Shown here in pieces: positions 42,630 to 49,949 of a stretch of DNA of 64,000 nucleotides. Source of the stretch: Halorubrum salinarum (GTDB lineage: Archaea; Halobacteriota; Halobacteria; Halobacteriales; Haloferacaceae). Under the pieces are notes generated by a model, which worked only from the letters and a program-made list of their open reading frames with translations, made no database searches and was not told the DNA's origin. The position numbers and the translations under genes are program-made. Where the stretch lies: positions 2,604,001 to 2,668,000 of the forward strand of contig NZ_CP053941.1 in the NCBI RefSeq assembly GCF_013267195.1. The letters run 5' to 3'. Position 1 is the stretch's first letter. Each line of letters starts with the position of its first letter.

Positions 42630-43124
42630 TCAGGCGGTGACCTTGTTCCCCAACAGATAGGCAGATATCATCAGCAGTGACATCGCGAACCCGATGAGCG
42701 ACGTGATCGCGAGGAAGCGGGCCGTCGTCGGAATATCGATTACGCCGGTGAGAGACATGAGCGCTGTATAGACCGGGAGTCCGACGGTCATCGTCGACAC
42801 GATCGTCGCAATCTTCCGCCCGTCCTGTTCAGTTAAGTTCCGAGTGAGAGACGATAGGAGGGCCACGGGATCTGGTTCGTCCCTGCGCTGCTTAGTTCTT
42901 GTTCGATTGTTGAACTCACACCGAAGGTCTGCGGACCGCCTCGCGTCGATCCGACGAATGCGCTCTCCGTATCCGACGCTCTCGGTATCCAGCAGCCGAA
43001 CCGCATTAGTCTCCGTGGGCTTGACCAGCGCGGGATCGCCCGACGAATCTAGACTCCGCTCGGCCCGATAGGCGATCGCGTCAGGCCCTTTTCGTCGCGA
43101 TTTCGTCGAGCTGGACCGAATCAA
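42630..43124 (-). CDS. Two-TM hypothetical protein, uncertain start
   Basis: A frame of up to 164 residues in a stretch with lower GC and untypical codon use. The C-terminal 65 residues hold two membrane helices (KIATIVSTMTVGLPVYTALM and TTARFLAITSLIGFAMSLLM). The N-terminal part is basic and odd, and overlaps the PHP gene by 44 bp if the first ATG is used. A GTG at 42866 would give a cleaner 78-residue protein. Only the membrane part is convincing. Function unknown. Confidence 0.45.
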   Translation of the reverse strand: MIRSSSTKSRRKGPDAIAYRAERSLDSSGDPALVKPTETNAVRLLDTESVGYGERIRRIDARRSADLRCEFNNRTRTKQRRDEPDPVALLSSLTRNLTEQDGRKIATIVSTMTVGLPVYTALMSLTGVIDIPTTARFLAITSLIGFAMSLLMISAYLLGNKVTA

Positions 43125-43968
43125 GCCCGCGCCGGTCGAGCTCCGCCTCGACCTCTCGCACGCGCGGCGCGATCTCGTCCGGCGCGTGGCTGTCGGTGCC
43201 GACGGTCACGTCGACGCCGGCGTCGACGAGGCGGTCGAGGAACGCCGGCGCCGGATGGAACTCCCCGTAGTCGTCGAGCAGCCGGCCGGCGTTGATCTCG
43301 GGGACGGTCCGCGAGCCCCGGAAGGCGTCCGCGACGGCGGCGTAGTGGTCCTCGGTCGCGAGCCCGCGGAGGTGCGGGTTGCGCTCGATCAGGTCCGGGT
43401 GCGCCGCGATCGCGAACAGCTCCGAGTCGATCAGGGCGACCAGCTTCTCGAAGTAGCGGTCGACCAGGTCGCGCCGCTCCGACTCCGGCTTGTCCGCGAA
43501 GTGGGACCGCGTGTGGACGTTCGCGCCGTCGAGGTCGTGGACGCTCCCGACCGCGTAGTCGAAGCCGGCGTCGTCGAGGAACTCGGCGATAGCCCCCTCG
43601 TGGGCGGGGTCGTAGTCCATCTCGGCGGCGTCGAACACGTCGATGGCGACCTCGTCGCGGACCGCCTCGATCGCCTCGCGGCGCCGCTCGTAGGTCAGGT
43701 CGAGGTTGAACCCGAACGCGCGCTTGTGGCGCCGCGCGGTCGAGTCCGGCGAGACGTTACAGTGATCGGCGAACCCGATCCCGTCGAGCCCGGCGTCCGC
43801 GGCCGCCTCGACCATCCAGCGCAGGAACGCCCCGTCCGAGTAGTTCGTGTGGGCGTGGTAGTCGTACACGCCTCGCCTTGGTCGCGGGCCGACTCGAAGG
43901 TTCGGGTCGCGCGCGACGCGGTACCGCGCCCCGTCCGGCCGCTCGCCCGACGCCTCCACCAGCAACAT
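43081..43968 (-). CDS. PHP-domain phosphoesterase
   Basis: A 295-residue PHP protein resembling histidinol-phosphate phosphatases. Metal ligands are visible in YDYHAHTNYSDGAF (H38, H40), GFADHCN, AAEMDY (Glu), VGSVHDLDG, AIAAHPDLIERN and VGTDSHAP. The start at 43968 is chosen because a TATA-like run lies 26 bp upstream; a GTG at 43869 would start right at the PHP motif. It is divergent from the heme peroxidase gene and shares its short AT-rich promoter. Substrate unknown. Confidence 0.87.
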   Translation of the reverse strand: MLLVEASGERPDGARYRVARDPNLRVGPRPRRGVYDYHAHTNYSDGAFLRWMVEAAADAGLDGIGFADHCNVSPDSTARRHKRAFGFNLDLTYERRREAIEAVRDEVAIDVFDAAEMDYDPAHEGAIAEFLDDAGFDYAVGSVHDLDGANVHTRSHFADKPESERRDLVDRYFEKLVALIDSELFAIAAHPDLIERNPHLRGLATEDHYAAVADAFRGSRTVPEINAGRLLDDYGEFHPAPAFLDRLVDAGVDVTVGTDSHAPDEIAPRVREVEAELDRRGLDSVQLDEIATKRA

Positions 43969-43989: not shown

Positions 43990-44010
43990 GTTCATTTAGA
44001 AAATTTTTTC
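43990..44010. promoter_or_regulatory. AT-rich bidirectional promoter, PHP gene / heme peroxidase
   Basis: A 21-bp nearly all A/T run separates two divergent starts only 53 bp apart (43968 and 44021). The same CATTTAGA segment (43993-44000) lies about 25-30 bp from each start, so both core promoters overlap and the two genes may compete or be co-regulated. Confidence 0.5.
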
Positions 44011-44020
44011 TCGCTGATGA

Positions 44021-46129
44021 TTGGTTTATCGTACCATAAGTACTACTGGCAAGATACGCTGTCGCGTCGTCGACGGGGACGACCGACCGCTCGCGGGACG
44101 GATCGTGGTCGGCGAACGGCGGGGCGGTGACGGGGACCGGATCGGCTACTGGACCACCGACGACGACGGGGGGTTCGTTCTCGAACCGGACGGGGGCGTC
44201 GACGTCGACGAGGTCTCGTTCACCGTCAGGAACCCCGCCGGCGGGGGGAGCGAGGAGCCGGTCCGGCGGCGAGGACGGCCGGATGGGGACGAGGGTGCCC
44301 TCCGCCTCACGGTGAACGCGCACCGCATCGCGATCCACGGGGGGACCGAACACCGCGGGATGAACGAGGCGGCGTGTACCGACGCGGGCCCGATCAGGAG
44401 CCACCGGTTCCACACGCAGTTCCCCGAGCTCGACCCGTACGAGCGCGACGACGACCTGCTCCGGACGCTCGGCGGGACCGGCGGCGAGGCCGACGCCCCG
44501 ATGATGGAGTCGCCGAACGACCCGGTCGGCGACGCCGAGACGCCCGCGGGCTACGGCATCTTCGGGCAGTTCGTCGACCACGACATCACGTTCGACCCGA
44601 CCTCCGACATCGACCGTCGGAACGACCCGGCCGCGCTCCGGAACTTCCGGACGCCGGCGCTCGACCTCGACTCGATGTACCGGACGAACGCGGAGGCGGC
44701 GCCGTTCCTCTACGACCACGAGACCGACGAGCGCAAGCTGCTCACCGGCGAGGCGGGCGCGCCGGACGCCGCGGACGGCGGCGGGCTCTCGGGGCTCCCG
44801 GGGACCGACCTCCAGCGCAACGAGCAGGGGGTCGCGCTGATCGGCGACCCGCGCAACGACGAGAACGTCGTCGTCTCGCAGCTCCAGCTCGCGTTCGTGA
44901 ACTTCCACAACCGCGTCGTCGACCACCTCCGGGGGCCGGGCGCCGACCTCGTGGAGGACGGCGAGTCGGTCCTCGAAGCCGCCCAGCGGCTCGTCAGGTG
45001 GCACTACCAGTGGGTCGTGCGCCACGACTTCCTCCCGCGGATCTGCGACCGGTACGTCCTCGACGACATCGAGGACCGCGGCCGGCAGTTCTTCCTCCCG
45101 CCGGGACGCACGCCGGCCATCCCGGTCGAGTTCGGCGGCGCCGCCTACCGCTTCGGCCACAGCATGATCCCCAACGCGTTCGACGTCAACGGCGAGGTCG
45201 GCGAGGTGCCGCTGTTCCCCACCGGCCCGGGCGACGGCCGGAGCCTCCGCGGCGGCCGCCCCGTCCCGAGCGACCTCGTCGTCGACTGGTCGCGGCTGCT
45301 GGACACCGGCGACGGCGACTACCAGCACGCGCGCAAGACGGAGCCGCTCCTCGCGCCGACGCTGTTCGACCTGCCCATCTCCGGGGACTCCTCGCTCGCC
45401 GTCCGGAACCTGCGGCGCGGGAAGGCGCTCGGCATCCCGTCGGGTCAGGACGTGGCCGCGCGGATGGGGTACGACCCGATCCGCAACGAGGCGTTCGGCG
45501 AGGACTCGCCGATGATGAAGACCCTGCGGGCGCACGGCCGCGGCGCGGACCCCGACTCGCCGCTGTGGTACTACGTGCTCGCCGAGGCGGAACACCAGCA
45601 GGACGGCGAGCGCCTCGGCGCGGTCGGCAGCCGCATCGTCGCCGAGACGCTGATCGGCCTGATCGAGGCCGACGAGACCGCCTACCCGAACGCCGCGCCG
45701 GACGACTGGGAGCCGAGCCTCCCGCAGCCGACGCCGACAGAGGGCTACACGCTCGCCGACGTGACGGCGTTCGCGGCCGAGGCGGCCCCGGACGGGCTCG
45801 TGATCGACGCCGTCGACGCCGGCCCGGGCAGCGGGGTCGGCGGCGGCCCCGGGGACGCCCTCGACGAGTCCGTGACGCTCCGGAACCTCGGCGACGAACC
45901 GGTCGACCTGACCGGCTACGTCATCGACCTCGGGGGCCAGCGGGACGGCCTCCCGAGCGCGACGCTCGGCCCCGACGAGACGCTGACGGTCCACGTCGGC
46001 GCGGGCGCGGACACCGACTCCGACCACTACCTCGGCCGCGGCGCGCCCGCGCTCGACGACGAGGGCGAGGTCGTCGCCGTGTACGACGCGGACGGCGAGC
46101 GGACGACGAGGCGGCGCTACGTCGGCTGA
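44021..46129 (+). CDS. Animal-type heme peroxidase with lamin-tail domain
   Basis: A 702-residue protein. Residues 8-70 look like a transthyretin/carboxypeptidase-regulatory beta domain; 110-585 are an animal-type (peroxinectin/cyclooxygenase-like) heme peroxidase; 595-702 are a lamin-tail (LTD) beta-sandwich. The distal site is FGQFVDHDITF (D186, H187, then D188 for calcium), R278 and E281 lie in GDPRNDENVVVS, and the proximal heme ligand is H380 in YRFGHSMIP. No signal peptide is visible. The first usable codon is a TTG at 44021; in-frame GTG codons near 44105 are alternatives. Confidence 0.87.
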   Translation: MVYRTISTTGKIRCRVVDGDDRPLAGRIVVGERRGGDGDRIGYWTTDDDGGFVLEPDGGVDVDEVSFTVRNPAGGGSEEPVRRRGRPDGDEGALRLTVNAHRIAIHGGTEHRGMNEAACTDAGPIRSHRFHTQFPELDPYERDDDLLRTLGGTGGEADAPMMESPNDPVGDAETPAGYGIFGQFVDHDITFDPTSDIDRRNDPAALRNFRTPALDLDSMYRTNAEAAPFLYDHETDERKLLTGEAGAPDAADGGGLSGLPGTDLQRNEQGVALIGDPRNDENVVVSQLQLAFVNFHNRVVDHLRGPGADLVEDGESVLEAAQRLVRWHYQWVVRHDFLPRICDRYVLDDIEDRGRQFFLPPGRTPAIPVEFGGAAYRFGHSMIPNAFDVNGEVGEVPLFPTGPGDGRSLRGGRPVPSDLVVDWSRLLDTGDGDYQHARKTEPLLAPTLFDLPISGDSSLAVRNLRRGKALGIPSGQDVAARMGYDPIRNEAFGEDSPMMKTLRAHGRGADPDSPLWYYVLAEAEHQQDGERLGAVGSRIVAETLIGLIEADETAYPNAAPDDWEPSLPQPTPTEGYTLADVTAFAAEAAPDGLVIDAVDAGPGSGVGGGPGDALDESVTLRNLGDEPVDLTGYVIDLGGQRDGLPSATLGPDETLTVHVGAGADTDSDHYLGRGAPALDDEGEVVAVYDADGERTTRRRYVG

Positions 46130-46195: not shown

Positions 46196-47413
46196 TCACC
46201 GCCCCCCGCCGACGACCGCGTTCGCGGAGATGACGAGGAACGCGAGCCCGGACATGCCGGCGATGACGGCGAACGACGCGGCCCAGCCGAGCAGGTCCGC
46301 GACGAGGCCGACGCCGACGGAGCCGGCCGAGCCGATGACGGTGTAGACGGTCCGGATCAGGCCGAACCCGGCGCCGCGCTCCGCGTCGCCGAGCGCGTCC
46401 ATGAAGCGCGGGTCGATGGCCGAGAAGAAGCTCGACCCGAGGCCGGCGAGGAAGACGGCGACGCCGAGCCCCGCGACCGCGGGGAGCGCGGGGAGCCCAA
46501 TCGCGGTCGGGAGCCGCAGGAGGTCGGAGAGCGCGACCAGCGCGCCGAGGCCGAGAGCCCCGCCGAGGAGGGCCGCGGCGATGCTCGCGTCGCGGCCCAG
46601 CCGGTCGGAGAGCCGCCCGAGCCCGACCTGCGCGCCGGCGCGGACGACGAAGAACGCCGAGAAGACGCCGCCCGCGAAGGCGGGCGAGTACCCGCGGAGC
46701 TCGACGAGGAACGTCGGGAGGAAGGAGATGACGCCCTGCGCGACGTACGTCCCCAGCGTCGCCACCGCGAGCGGGACGAGGACCTCGCGGCGCCCGACCA
46801 GTTCGAGCAGCGGCGCGAGCCGGAGCCGCTCGGCCATCGGCTGGTCCGGGCGCCGCGGCTCGGTCGGACGGACGCGGCGCGCGAACAGGGCGAAGATGGG
46901 GACGCCGACGAGCGCGGCCAGCGCGACCCCTGGCCGCCAGCCGTAGCGGAACCCCACCCACGTCGCGGCCACCGGCGCGACCAGCCCCGCGAGCGGCCCG
47001 CCGAGCGAGTGGATCCCGACCGCGGTGCCGAGGTCGTCGAACGTCCGCGAGAGCAGCGTGGTCGCCACCGCGTAGTGGAGCCCCGCCGCGAGCCCGAGCA
47101 GCACCGCGGCCAGCACGAACGCGGGGAAGACCGGCACGACGGCGAGCAGGAGGCTCGTCGCGGTCGTCCCGCCCACGGCGACGAGGATCACGCGGCGCTC
47201 GCCGTACCGGTCGGCGAGGATGCCGCTCGGGAACTGCGAGAGCCCGTAGGCGAACCACATGCCGGAGAGCGCGACCCCCACCGCGGTGTTCGACACGCCG
47301 AAGTCGTCGATGATCAGGGGCACGACCGGGCTGATCGCCAGCCTGGCGAAGTACGTCACGAAGAACGCGAGCATACACAGCGTCAGCACCGAGTGGCGGT
47401 ACCGCCAGTTCAT
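46196..47413 (-). CDS. MFS transporter
   Basis: A 405-residue major facilitator with 12 helices. The loop-2/3 motif A is GILADRYGERRVIL and its repeat in the second half is LGRLSDRLGRDASI. The central cytoplasmic loop (about 190-210) is rich in Arg and Pro. No drug-, sugar- or nitrate-specific motif stands out. It converges with the heme peroxidase gene. Confidence 0.87.
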   Translation of the reverse strand: MNWRYRHSVLTLCMLAFFVTYFARLAISPVVPLIIDDFGVSNTAVGVALSGMWFAYGLSQFPSGILADRYGERRVILVAVGGTTATSLLLAVVPVFPAFVLAAVLLGLAAGLHYAVATTLLSRTFDDLGTAVGIHSLGGPLAGLVAPVAATWVGFRYGWRPGVALAALVGVPIFALFARRVRPTEPRRPDQPMAERLRLAPLLELVGRREVLVPLAVATLGTYVAQGVISFLPTFLVELRGYSPAFAGGVFSAFFVVRAGAQVGLGRLSDRLGRDASIAAALLGGALGLGALVALSDLLRLPTAIGLPALPAVAGLGVAVFLAGLGSSFFSAIDPRFMDALGDAERGAGFGLIRTVYTVIGSAGSVGVGLVADLLGWAASFAVIAGMSGLAFLVISANAVVGGGR

Positions 47414-47547: not shown

Positions 47548-48192
47548 TCACTCGACGGCGCCCGGGTCGACTCGGCTGCCGACCCACAGCAGCGTGGCGC
47601 AGAGCCCGGCCACCGAGACCGGGAGGAACCAACGCAGCGCGGCGAGCAGCCCGGCGGAGGCCTGGACCCCGATCACGAGCAGGAGCGTCGGGCCGCAGCA
47701 GGCGAACCCGGAGAGCAGCCCGGGGACTCCCGCGACCGCCCCCGCGCCGGCGCCGATCCGACAGGCCGCGGGCCCCCGCCAGGCGACGACCGAGACCGCG
47801 AGCGTGACTCCCACGAGCGCGGCCAGCGCCGCGCCGAGGGCCGCGTTGACCGGCGAGAAGAGGTACTCGACCGGGCCGGCGGACAGCAGCGCCACGGGCT
47901 CGTACTGGAACGGCGCGACCCGCCGCGCCGCGAGCGCCAGCGGGTCGCCCGCGACGACGAGGTCGACCGTCGGGACTGCCCGCCCGGCGTCACTCGCGGC
48001 CCCTCCCTCGCGGAGCCCAAGGTGACCGAGTCCGACGAGGTACGCGAGGAGGTACCCGCCCGCTGCGATCAGCGCCGTCGCCCGGCCGTCGCGTCGACCG
48101 AGCGCCGCGCGGACCGCGAACCCGGTCCGGCGCAGCAGTCCGGCGACCCGCGCGCCCGGCGACTCGGCCGACGCGGGGGCCTCAGCGGTCAT
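47548..48192 (-). CDS. Membrane protein with intramembrane CC-GP motif
   Basis: A 214-residue protein with about five membrane helices. The fourth to fifth segment contains SGFACCGPTLLLVIG, with C165-C166 next to Gly-Pro, reminiscent of the paired Cys in MerT-like or thiol-handling membrane proteins. The loop at 60-110 is exported and lacks Cys. It overlaps the DUF3179 gene by 11 bp and is the second gene of that operon. Function unknown; a thiol or metal role is only a guess. Confidence 0.75.
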   Translation of the reverse strand: MTAEAPASAESPGARVAGLLRRTGFAVRAALGRRDGRATALIAAGGYLLAYLVGLGHLGLREGGAASDAGRAVPTVDLVVAGDPLALAARRVAPFQYEPVALLSAGPVEYLFSPVNAALGAALAALVGVTLAVSVVAWRGPAACRIGAGAGAVAGVPGLLSGFACCGPTLLLVIGVQASAGLLAALRWFLPVSVAGLCATLLWVGSRVDPGAVE

Positions 48193-49309
48193 CCCCCGCC
48201 CCCGTGTGCTCGCCGACGAACGCGGTGTCGGGGTAGAACCCGGCCCACGCGAACCACATGGCGTCGAACGCGAGGACCTCCTCTAACGGGAGGTCGGCCG
48301 CGGCGAACCCGCCGCCCTCGCCACCGACGCGGTACCCGTCGCCGTCCGACTCGACGGAGAGCCCCTCGGGGTTGCGGTAGACGTGGCCGGTCGCGAGCCC
48401 CGGGTCGGCGACGGCGACGACGCGCGCGCCGCTCTCGCCGACCCTCCCCGTCAGCGTGCGCTCCGCGAGCAGCGTCGCCTTGTCGAACGCGACGGCGCCC
48501 GCCGCCGTCCGCGCCCCGATGACGACCGACTTCGGGTGCCCCTCCTCCGGCGACGCGAGCGGCGGGAACGCGGTCCGCTCCTGGGCGTAGTAGCCGCCGA
48601 GCGGGGCGTACGTCCCGTAGGGGTCGCTCTCGTACCGGCGGACGTACCCGGTCTCGTCGGTCATGACGAGCGAGTCCGGGTGGCGGTCGGCCCACGCCTC
48701 GGCCGCCGTCCACGTGACCCGGAACTCGTCGAGCGTCTCCCCGGCCAGCGGGCCGTCGATCCCCGTGGCGAGCATCTGCGGCCACCAGCTGTCGGTCCCC
48801 CGGTCGTACATGATCAGGTTCGAGTTGACGAGGCGCCCGGAGACGCCGAAGGTCGTGTCGCCCCGGCGGAACCCCTGCGCCGTCCCGGTCAGCGGACAGT
48901 ACGTGACCGCGACCGGCTCGCCGCCGACCACGTCGTTGACGATCTCGTGATGCGCGAGCAGGTGGCGGGGGTACGCTTTCGCCGCACCGCCGCGGACGAC
49001 GCCGAACACCGGCGTGCCCCGCGCGAAGTTCACCTCACCGATCGGGCGGAACGAGGGGTCGTCGACGGAGGGTATCCCGTCCTTGCCCACGCCGCCGTCG
49101 AGGGACCGCGACACCAGGCGCTCGGGCTCGTAGGCGACGTGGTACTCCGCCTCGACGGTCGGCGGCGGGCCGCCGCCGTCGCTCGCCGCGTCGCCGTCCG
49201 GGCCCTCGCCGCCGGGGCCGCCTCCGCTGCCGCCGCCGACGCAGCCGGCGAGACCGAGGGCGCCGGCCGACGCGAATCCGGCGAGCATCGACCGACGAGT
49301 CCGGTTCAT
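48182..49309 (-). CDS. DUF3179 Tat lipoprotein
   Basis: A 375-residue exported protein: TRRSMLAGFASAGALGLAGC gives the twin-arginine motif and lipobox, followed by a Gly-rich spacer. The DUF3179 domain follows with VFGVVRGGAAKAYPRHLLAHHEIVND, VTYCPLTGTAQGF (conserved Cys) and VSGRLVNSNLIMYDRGTDSWWPQ. The biochemical role of DUF3179 is not known. A TATA-like TTTTACT on the minus strand near 49335 sets the start at 49309. It forms an operon with the CC-motif membrane protein. Confidence 0.88.
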   Translation of the reverse strand: MNRTRRSMLAGFASAGALGLAGCVGGGSGGGPGGEGPDGDAASDGGGPPPTVEAEYHVAYEPERLVSRSLDGGVGKDGIPSVDDPSFRPIGEVNFARGTPVFGVVRGGAAKAYPRHLLAHHEIVNDVVGGEPVAVTYCPLTGTAQGFRRGDTTFGVSGRLVNSNLIMYDRGTDSWWPQMLATGIDGPLAGETLDEFRVTWTAAEAWADRHPDSLVMTDETGYVRRYESDPYGTYAPLGGYYAQERTAFPPLASPEEGHPKSVVIGARTAAGAVAFDKATLLAERTLTGRVGESGARVVAVADPGLATGHVYRNPEGLSVESDGDGYRVGGEGGGFAAADLPLEEVLAFDAMWFAWAGFYPDTAFVGEHTGAGDDR

Positions 49310-49391
49310 ACCGACCGCTCGGGGGGCGAACGAGTAAAATCCGAAGCGTGGGTGTGTTTCGCACGCACAGCCGCCCAAGCCGACACGAACC

Positions 49392-49949
49392 TCACTCGTG
49401 TCCGCCCGGCGAGCCCTCCCGCAGCCGCTCCGCGATGGCCGCGCCGGCGGTCCGCGGGTCCGCCTCGCGGATCCGAACCGCGTCGCCGACGGCGACGCGA
49501 CCGGGTTCGACCACCTCACAGCAGAGCCCGCCGCGGTTCCGGAGCGCCGCCGCGATCCCCTCCTCGCCGGCGACCTCCTCCAAGTGCGCGCACGGGGGTC
49601 GACGCCGCGTCGGCCGCAGGAGCGCGTCGCCGACGGCGACGGTCGCGCCGAGGAGCGAGTCCATCCCGGGATCGACCCCGTCGACGACGACGTTCCGGCG
49701 GTGGCGGCCGTCGCGGAGGTCGACCCCGGTCGCCTCCCGGACCGCGGCGAGCGCCGACGCGGCGACGAGGGTGACCGCGCAGGCGTCGAGCTGGAAGTGG
49801 CCGTCGCCGCCGCGGTAGCGGTCGCCCTCCACGCCGTCCGGACGGATCTCGACGGCCTCGCGGCGGACTGGGGGCGCGCCGCCCTCCGGCGCGGTGACGA
49901 GCGACGCGACGCTGCCGGGGCCGTCCGCGTCGGCCTCGTCCGCCGGCAT
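49392..49949 (-). CDS. MOSC-domain protein
   Basis: A 185-residue stand-alone MOSC domain, a beta-barrel related to the C-terminal part of molybdenum cofactor sulfurase. GVEGDRYRGGDGHFQ is the family's G-D-x-H-like loop, and the catalytic Cys is expected at CAHLEEV or in GLCCEVVEPG near residue 150. Such proteins may move sulfur or act in metal-cofactor metabolism. Its ATG shares bases with the TGA of the upstream membrane protein gene (TGATG). Confidence 0.85.
   Translation of the reverse strand: MPADEADADGPGSVASLVTAPEGGAPPVRREAVEIRPDGVEGDRYRGGDGHFQLDACAVTLVAASALAAVREATGVDLRDGRHRRNVVVDGVDPGMDSLLGATVAVGDALLRPTRRRPPCAHLEEVAGEEGIAAALRNRGGLCCEVVEPGRVAVGDAVRIREADPRTAGAAIAERLREGSPGGHE

What the first reader, a model, noticed from the sequence alone, without database searches (positions are those of the whole stretch)
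44021..46129. Animal-type heme peroxidase with N-terminal beta domain and C-terminal lamin-tail domain in an archaeon
All key heme residues seem present (D186-H187-D188, R278, E281, H380), so it should be an active enzyme. The transthyretin-like front domain and lamin-tail end are an unusual combination. There is no signal peptide, yet lamin-tail domains usually occur in exported proteins. The start codon appears to be TTG, so part of the N-terminus could also have been lost or misread.
Basis: partly seen in the sequence, partly recalled or inferred. Interest (0 to 1): 0.6.

Follow-up and report, generated by a model that had tools for sequence, protein, structure and literature searches.

The report
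Cytosolic heme peroxidase of Halorubrum archaea
This is a real, apparently intact member of the enzyme family that includes our own myeloperoxidase, found inside some salt-loving archaea with an extra domain at each end, and in this particular strain its normal start codon has mutated, so whether it is still made is an open question.

Summary
The ORF encodes a PF03098 heme peroxidase with an N-terminal transthyretin/CarboxypepD_reg-like beta domain and a C-terminal lamin-tail domain (LTD), in a Halorubrum-type haloarchaeon. Distal Asp-His-Asp, Arg/Glu, proximal His and its Asn partner are in place and near-invariant in 57 aligned sequences. (1) Nothing upstream is missing: 10 of 11 other Halorubrum copies have an ATG five codons downstream of the TTG (the 11th two codons further on). 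Here that codon (44036) is ATA, so the TTG at 44021 is only a fallback. (2) The missing signal peptide is not a loss: relatives, bacterial and archaeal, lack one too. Haloarchaeal copies form one supported clade beside bacterial peroxidases, with three architectures: N+POX, POX+LTD and, in Halorubrum only, N+POX+LTD. The gene is patchy (11 of 52 Halorubrum genomes): an empty PHP-MFS site elsewhere, a decayed remnant in one genome. The coding sequence shows purifying selection (dN/dS 0.16-0.24). Most likely a cytosolic, lactoperoxidase-type H2O2-dependent peroxidase; substrate and expression in this strain are untested. A new architectural variant of a known kind, of modest interest.

The parts
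44036..46129 (+). Heme peroxidase coding sequence from the conserved start codon (ATA here, ATG in orthologues) to the stop; 697 aa
44021..44023 (+). TTG, the only upstream in-frame standard start codon; would add 5 residues
44036..44038 (+). ATA at the position of the conserved ATG start
   Evidence: alignment of 12 genomes
43995..44009 (+). A/T-rich TATA-like element (TTTAGAAAATTTTTT), conserved upstream of the orthologues
   Evidence: promoter role inferred
44051..44320 (+). N-terminal transthyretin/CarboxypepD_reg-like beta domain (about residues 6-95)
44336..45775 (+). Heme peroxidase domain (about residues 101-580); Q178, D181-H182-D183, D210, D212, R273, E276, H375, N458 (697-aa numbering)
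45782..46123 (+). Lamin-tail domain (residues 583-696)
43081..43968 (-). PHP-domain gene next to the peroxidase (flank of the locus)
46196..47413 (-). MFS transporter gene on the other side; directly adjacent to the PHP gene in many genomes lacking the peroxidase

Best explanation
It is a cytosolic heme peroxidase of the peroxidase-cyclooxygenase superfamily, from a haloarchaeal branch next to bacterial single-domain peroxidases. Shown by sequence: the catalytic residue set is complete, the predicted fold matches lactoperoxidase, myeloperoxidase and a cyanobacterial peroxidase, and the coding sequence has been under purifying selection. Inferred: heme b is held by proximal His375 (hydrogen-bonded to Asn458) and probably by ester bonds to Asp181 and Glu276, with a Ca2+ site at Asp183/Thr206/Asp210/Asp212. 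Distal His182 and Arg273 split H2O2 to give Compound I, which then oxidises a one-electron donor or an easily oxidised anion (Br-, I-, SCN-). The Met that makes myeloperoxidase a chloride oxidiser is Asn here, so efficient chloride oxidation is not expected. The two beta domains probably bind a partner or surface rather than direct export. In this strain the conserved ATG start is ATA; the protein is probably made, if at all, from the upstream UUG or at a low level from AUA itself.
For: Pfam hits above cut-off; catalytic residues aligned to MPO/LPO/8s6c and near-invariant in 57 sequences; Foldseek best hit 8s6c (cyanobacterial peroxidase) at 1.5e-15, then MPO, DUOX1 and LPO; AlphaFold mean pLDDT 78.5; dN/dS 0.16-0.24 against five relatives, each domain at most 0.35 in pairs with the window; no signal peptide in the haloarchaeal relatives and no convincing one in the bacterial relatives; haloarchaeal clade support 99/98; ATG at the conserved start in the other Halorubrum copies. 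Haloarchaea use UUG on transcripts with a leader but not in leaderless initiation (PMC3986360).
Against: Pfam aligns only the middle third of the profile (143-326 of 530). No biochemical, expression or proteomic data were found for this gene. The start codon is non-standard here. No conserved gene partner hints at the substrate: neighbours of bacterial relatives differ from locus to locus.
Confidence: 0.7

Rival explanations
1. In this strain the gene is a fresh pseudogene: the ATG-to-ATA change has silenced a dispensable peroxidase, and the open frame is simply too young to have decayed.
For: The start codon is ATA in this genome only. The gene is dispensable in the genus: 11 of 52 genomes have it, many others have PHP and MFS directly adjacent, and G011 keeps only a frame-broken piece of residues 1-107 at the same site.
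Against: No internal stop or frameshift; dN/dS for the window against L002 (0.170) is no higher than between other species pairs; an upstream in-frame TTG exists.
Confidence: 0.25
2. It is an exported or surface enzyme that uses the LTD as an envelope anchor and leaves the cell by a non-classical route.
For: The only other LTD protein in this genome is a lipoprotein-like metallo-beta-lactamase protein with a lipobox; LTDs occur in membrane-associated hydrolases (PMC5118699).
Against: No Sec, Tat or lipobox signal in this protein or in the haloarchaeal relatives, including those with an LTD.
Confidence: 0.1
3. It is a lipid dioxygenase/cyclooxygenase-like or Mn(II)-oxidising enzyme rather than a general peroxidase.
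For: The superfamily contains cyclooxygenases, alpha-dioxygenases (weak hit 4hhr) and bacterial Mn oxidases (PMC3396595).
Against: The Arg-x-x-Glu distal pair and the Asn next to the proximal His, typical of peroxidases, are kept (PMC4420034, excepts the cyclooxygenase family from the Asn rule). No PERCAL or hemolysin-type Ca2+ motif as in the PepA group. Mn oxidation itself cannot be excluded by sequence.
Confidence: 0.08

Closest known systems
Bacterial single-domain PF03098 heme peroxidases ('short peroxicins', Family 5 of the peroxidase-cyclooxygenase superfamily; CDD cd09819 An_peroxidase_bacterial_1 is a lead, not tested)
   Same: 33-46% identity, same catalytic set, shared RWHYQWV signature, no convincing signal peptide
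   Different: None of the 50 bacterial sequences scanned by Pfam has an LTD, and the N-terminal domain finds no significant match in the bacterial loci
Lactoperoxidase / myeloperoxidase (animal Family 1)
   Same: Fold and heme-site residues
   Different: About 15% identity; animal enzymes are secreted or granular; Asn instead of Met at the MPO Met243 position
Cyanobacterium TDX16 peroxidase (PDB 8s6c)
   Same: Best solved match by sequence (5.4e-9) and by fold (1.5e-15)
   Different: 18% identity in the Foldseek alignment; lacks the RWHYQWV signature
Haloarchaeal metallo-beta-lactamase + LTD lipoprotein-like proteins (ComA-like)
   Same: C-terminal LTD, about 37% identical to the one here
   Different: Different catalytic domain; has a lipobox

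Membership tests
Peroxidase-cyclooxygenase superfamily (PF03098) | Profile score above the curated cut-off | tested here: met
   60.6 bits against 25
Peroxidase-cyclooxygenase superfamily (PF03098) | Distal motif x-D-H-D-x with a Gln before it | tested here: met
   Q178, D181-H182-D183; 56-57 of 57 sequences
Peroxidase-cyclooxygenase superfamily (PF03098) | Distal Arg-x-x-Glu | tested here: met
   R273, E276, invariant in 57
Peroxidase-cyclooxygenase superfamily (PF03098) | Proximal His hydrogen-bonded to Asn | tested here: met
   H375 invariant, N458 in 56 of 57; residues only, the bond itself was not measured
Peroxidase-cyclooxygenase superfamily (PF03098) | Mainly alpha-helical peroxidase fold | tested here: met
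   Foldseek to 8s6c, MPO, LPO; superposition loose
Peroxidase-cyclooxygenase superfamily (PF03098) | Heme binding and H2O2-dependent activity | not testable with these tools
   needs purified protein
MPO-type chloride peroxidase | Met forming the heme sulfonium bond | tested here: not met
   Asn277 at that position
Family 5 short peroxicins | Place in the published superfamily tree | not tested
   Reference sequences of that tree were not on hand; the assignment is an inference from size, lack of signal peptide and bacterial kin
PepA-type bacterial peroxidases (incl. Mn oxidases) | PERCAL or hemolysin-type Ca2+ repeats | tested here: not met
   none found
LTD (PF00932) | Profile score above the curated cut-off | tested here: met
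   36.6 bits against 34.3, just above
Transthyretin/CarboxypepD_reg-like domain | Profile or fold match | tested here: inconclusive
   No Pfam hit for this protein; 7 of 19 haloarchaeal sequences hit CarboxypepD_reg, best 1.3e-4; transthyretin dominates the Foldseek list but E above 0.1 and pLDDT 57

The most novel reading that the evidence does not exclude
A cytosolic haloarchaeal peroxidase that works in molar chloride and oxidises bromide or another anion inside the cell, tethered by two beta domains to a specific target, and that in this strain is translated from an AUA start codon.
Probability: 0.06. Interest if true: 0.7.

Novelty: new variant of a known kind. Interest (0 to 1): 0.33.

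Why it matters
[quoted passage not shown] Haloarchaea carry a small, patchy branch of related enzymes with added domains, in organisms whose cytosol holds molar chloride, so this branch offers a clean test of which substrate such an enzyme uses. The ATG-to-ATA change also makes a natural test of start-codon choice in haloarchaea.

Tried and rejected
Missing upstream segment with a signal peptide: rejected, an in-frame stop lies directly before the TTG and orthologues start at codon 44036. Chance ORF in GC-rich DNA: rejected, orthologues and purifying selection. Acquisition from animals: not supported, haloarchaeal copies group by themselves beside bacteria and match animal enzymes only remotely (animal sequences were compared through PDB searches, not placed in the tree). 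Operon or partner-gene clue to the substrate: neighbours of bacterial relatives are unrelated from locus to locus. Separate fold of the N-terminal domain: low confidence. LTD or N-terminal domain encoded next to bacterial relatives: not found. Literature search for an archaeal heme peroxidase of this type found none in the held library.

Full report
Observation. The window lies in a 3.34-Mb genome whose relatives are Halorubrum species. The ORF at 44021-46129 is open for 702 codons from TTG. Pfam finds An_peroxidase (60.6 bits, cut-off 25) and LTD (36.6 bits, cut-off 34.3). NCBIfam finds nothing. It is the only PF03098 match in the genome.

Catalytic site. phmmer and profile alignments to solved peroxidases place Gln-x-x-Asp-His-Asp, Arg-x-x-Glu, the proximal His and the following Asn on the corresponding residues of myeloperoxidase, lactoperoxidase and the cyanobacterial peroxidase 8s6c. 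In 57 aligned sequences the distal His, Ca2+ Asp, Arg, Glu and proximal His are invariant, and the Gln, ester Asp and Asn each fail once. The Ca2+ loop keeps Thr/Ser, Asp, Asp. In three of the four POX+LTD relatives the Ca2+ Asp is Glu. The position of myeloperoxidase Met243 is Asn. The roles given to these residues (ester bonds, Ca2+, halide Gln) follow PMC4420034 and general knowledge of MPO/LPO; they were not measured here.

Structure. AlphaFold on 57 sequences gives mean pLDDT 78.5: a beta domain (residues 7-92), a helical peroxidase core, and a C-terminal beta domain (588-694). Foldseek matches 8s6c (1.5e-15), MPO, DUOX1 and LPO, with loose superposition. The N-terminal domain folded alone is of low confidence (pLDDT 57); its hits are dominated by transthyretin but with E above 0.1. 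Seven of 19 haloarchaeal sequences match CarboxypepD_reg weakly. 'Transthyretin-like' is therefore plausible, not proven.

Start codon. An alignment of the 5' regions of 12 Halorubrum genomes, the window included, shows a conserved A/T-rich element and then the ATG that opens the reading frame. In the nearest genomes the site reads CATGGGTACTACTGGC or CATGAGTACTACTGAC; here it reads CATAAGTACTACTGGC. Ten of the 11 others have ATG in this column; in L109 (Hrr. tebenquichense type) the ATG lies two codons further on, with another in-frame ATG upstream. The TTG at 44021 is also present in the four closest relatives, where an ATG is available. The next in-frame candidate is GTG at 44105, inside the N-terminal domain. 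An out-of-frame ATG lies at 44017. In haloarchaea AUG, GUG and UUG all work on transcripts with a leader, while leaderless initiation needs AUG (PMC3986360). Whether the transcript has a leader here is unknown; the spacing from the A/T-rich element suggests a short one (inference). So the gene may be translated from UUG, weakly from AUA, or not at all. An assembly error at this base cannot be excluded.

Selection. Pairwise dN/dS of the window against five relatives is 0.16-0.24 for the whole gene, 0.13-0.19 for the peroxidase domain and 0.15-0.35 for the two end domains. The window pairs do not stand out from pairs of other species, so constraint acted until recently; this cannot detect a very recent loss.

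Signal peptide. Start regions of about 100 relatives were read with a simple hydrophobicity scan and by eye; no dedicated predictor was available. No haloarchaeal copy looks like a Sec, Tat or lipoprotein signal. Most bacterial ones start with an HG...RG...GRFGRMFR stretch. Two are unsure because the ORF was taken from its first ATG, far upstream of the match: L023 (hydrophobic stretch) and L041 (a twin-arginine-like stretch). By contrast the only other LTD protein of this genome, a metallo-beta-lactamase-like protein, has a lipobox.

Architecture and history. The 23 haloarchaeal sequences form one side of a branch against 33 bacterial sequences (99/98) and fall in three supported groups: A (N+POX), B (POX+LTD) and Halorubrum (N+POX+LTD), with B next to Halorubrum (100/100). 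The LTD is most simply gained once before B and Halorubrum split. The N-terminal domain was either lost in B or gained twice; this is open. None of 50 bacterial sequences has an LTD. In 391 genomes of the class 22 have a PF03098 match; a drawn sample of the phylum added none outside them. In the family about two dozen of 170 genomes hold the peroxidase. A transfer from bacteria is likely, but the donor is not resolved and the tree is unrooted.

Locus. In most Halorubrum copies the gene lies near an enolase-superfamily gene, a PHP gene and an MFS gene. Of 52 genomes in the genus 11 have it. Many without it have PHP and MFS directly adjacent. G011 keeps a frame-broken piece (residues 1-107) at that site and G038 a short C-terminal piece elsewhere. 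In G331 the peroxidase lies on the other side of PHP. So the gene is gained, moved or lost often enough to be called dispensable.

Function. Neighbours of bacterial relatives (TetR regulator, isochorismatase, GMC oxidoreductase, ferritin-like protein and others) share no theme. The best inference is a cytosolic H2O2-dependent peroxidase of lactoperoxidase type; its natural substrate is unknown. Family 5 peroxidases in general have no known role (PMC4420034). No PERCAL or hemolysin-type motif is present.

Verdict. Observation confirmed; interpretation partly right. Ordinary in its catalytic core, a new architectural variant as a whole, with a start-codon change that needs an experiment.

Noticed in passing
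44036-44038: Conserved ATG start replaced by ATA in this genome only, among 12 Halorubrum copies compared.
   Followed up: partly
L114 and L138 (G011), between PHP and MFS: Frame-broken remnant of the first 107 residues of the peroxidase at the syntenic site.
   Followed up: partly
L083, L084, L098: The Ca2+-site Asp after the distal His is Glu in three POX+LTD relatives (DHE instead of DHD).
   Followed up: no
L031:6536-8404: A ferritin-like/LodA_C-like protein lies next to one bacterial relative.
   Followed up: no
L008, L081: Loci filed under a Bifidobacterium breve MAG group with Solirubrobacteraceae and Svornostia sequences; the MAG looks contaminated.
   Followed up: no
window 48182-49519 (-): DUF3179 protein with a lipobox-like stretch (LGLAGC) near the locus.
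   Followed up: no
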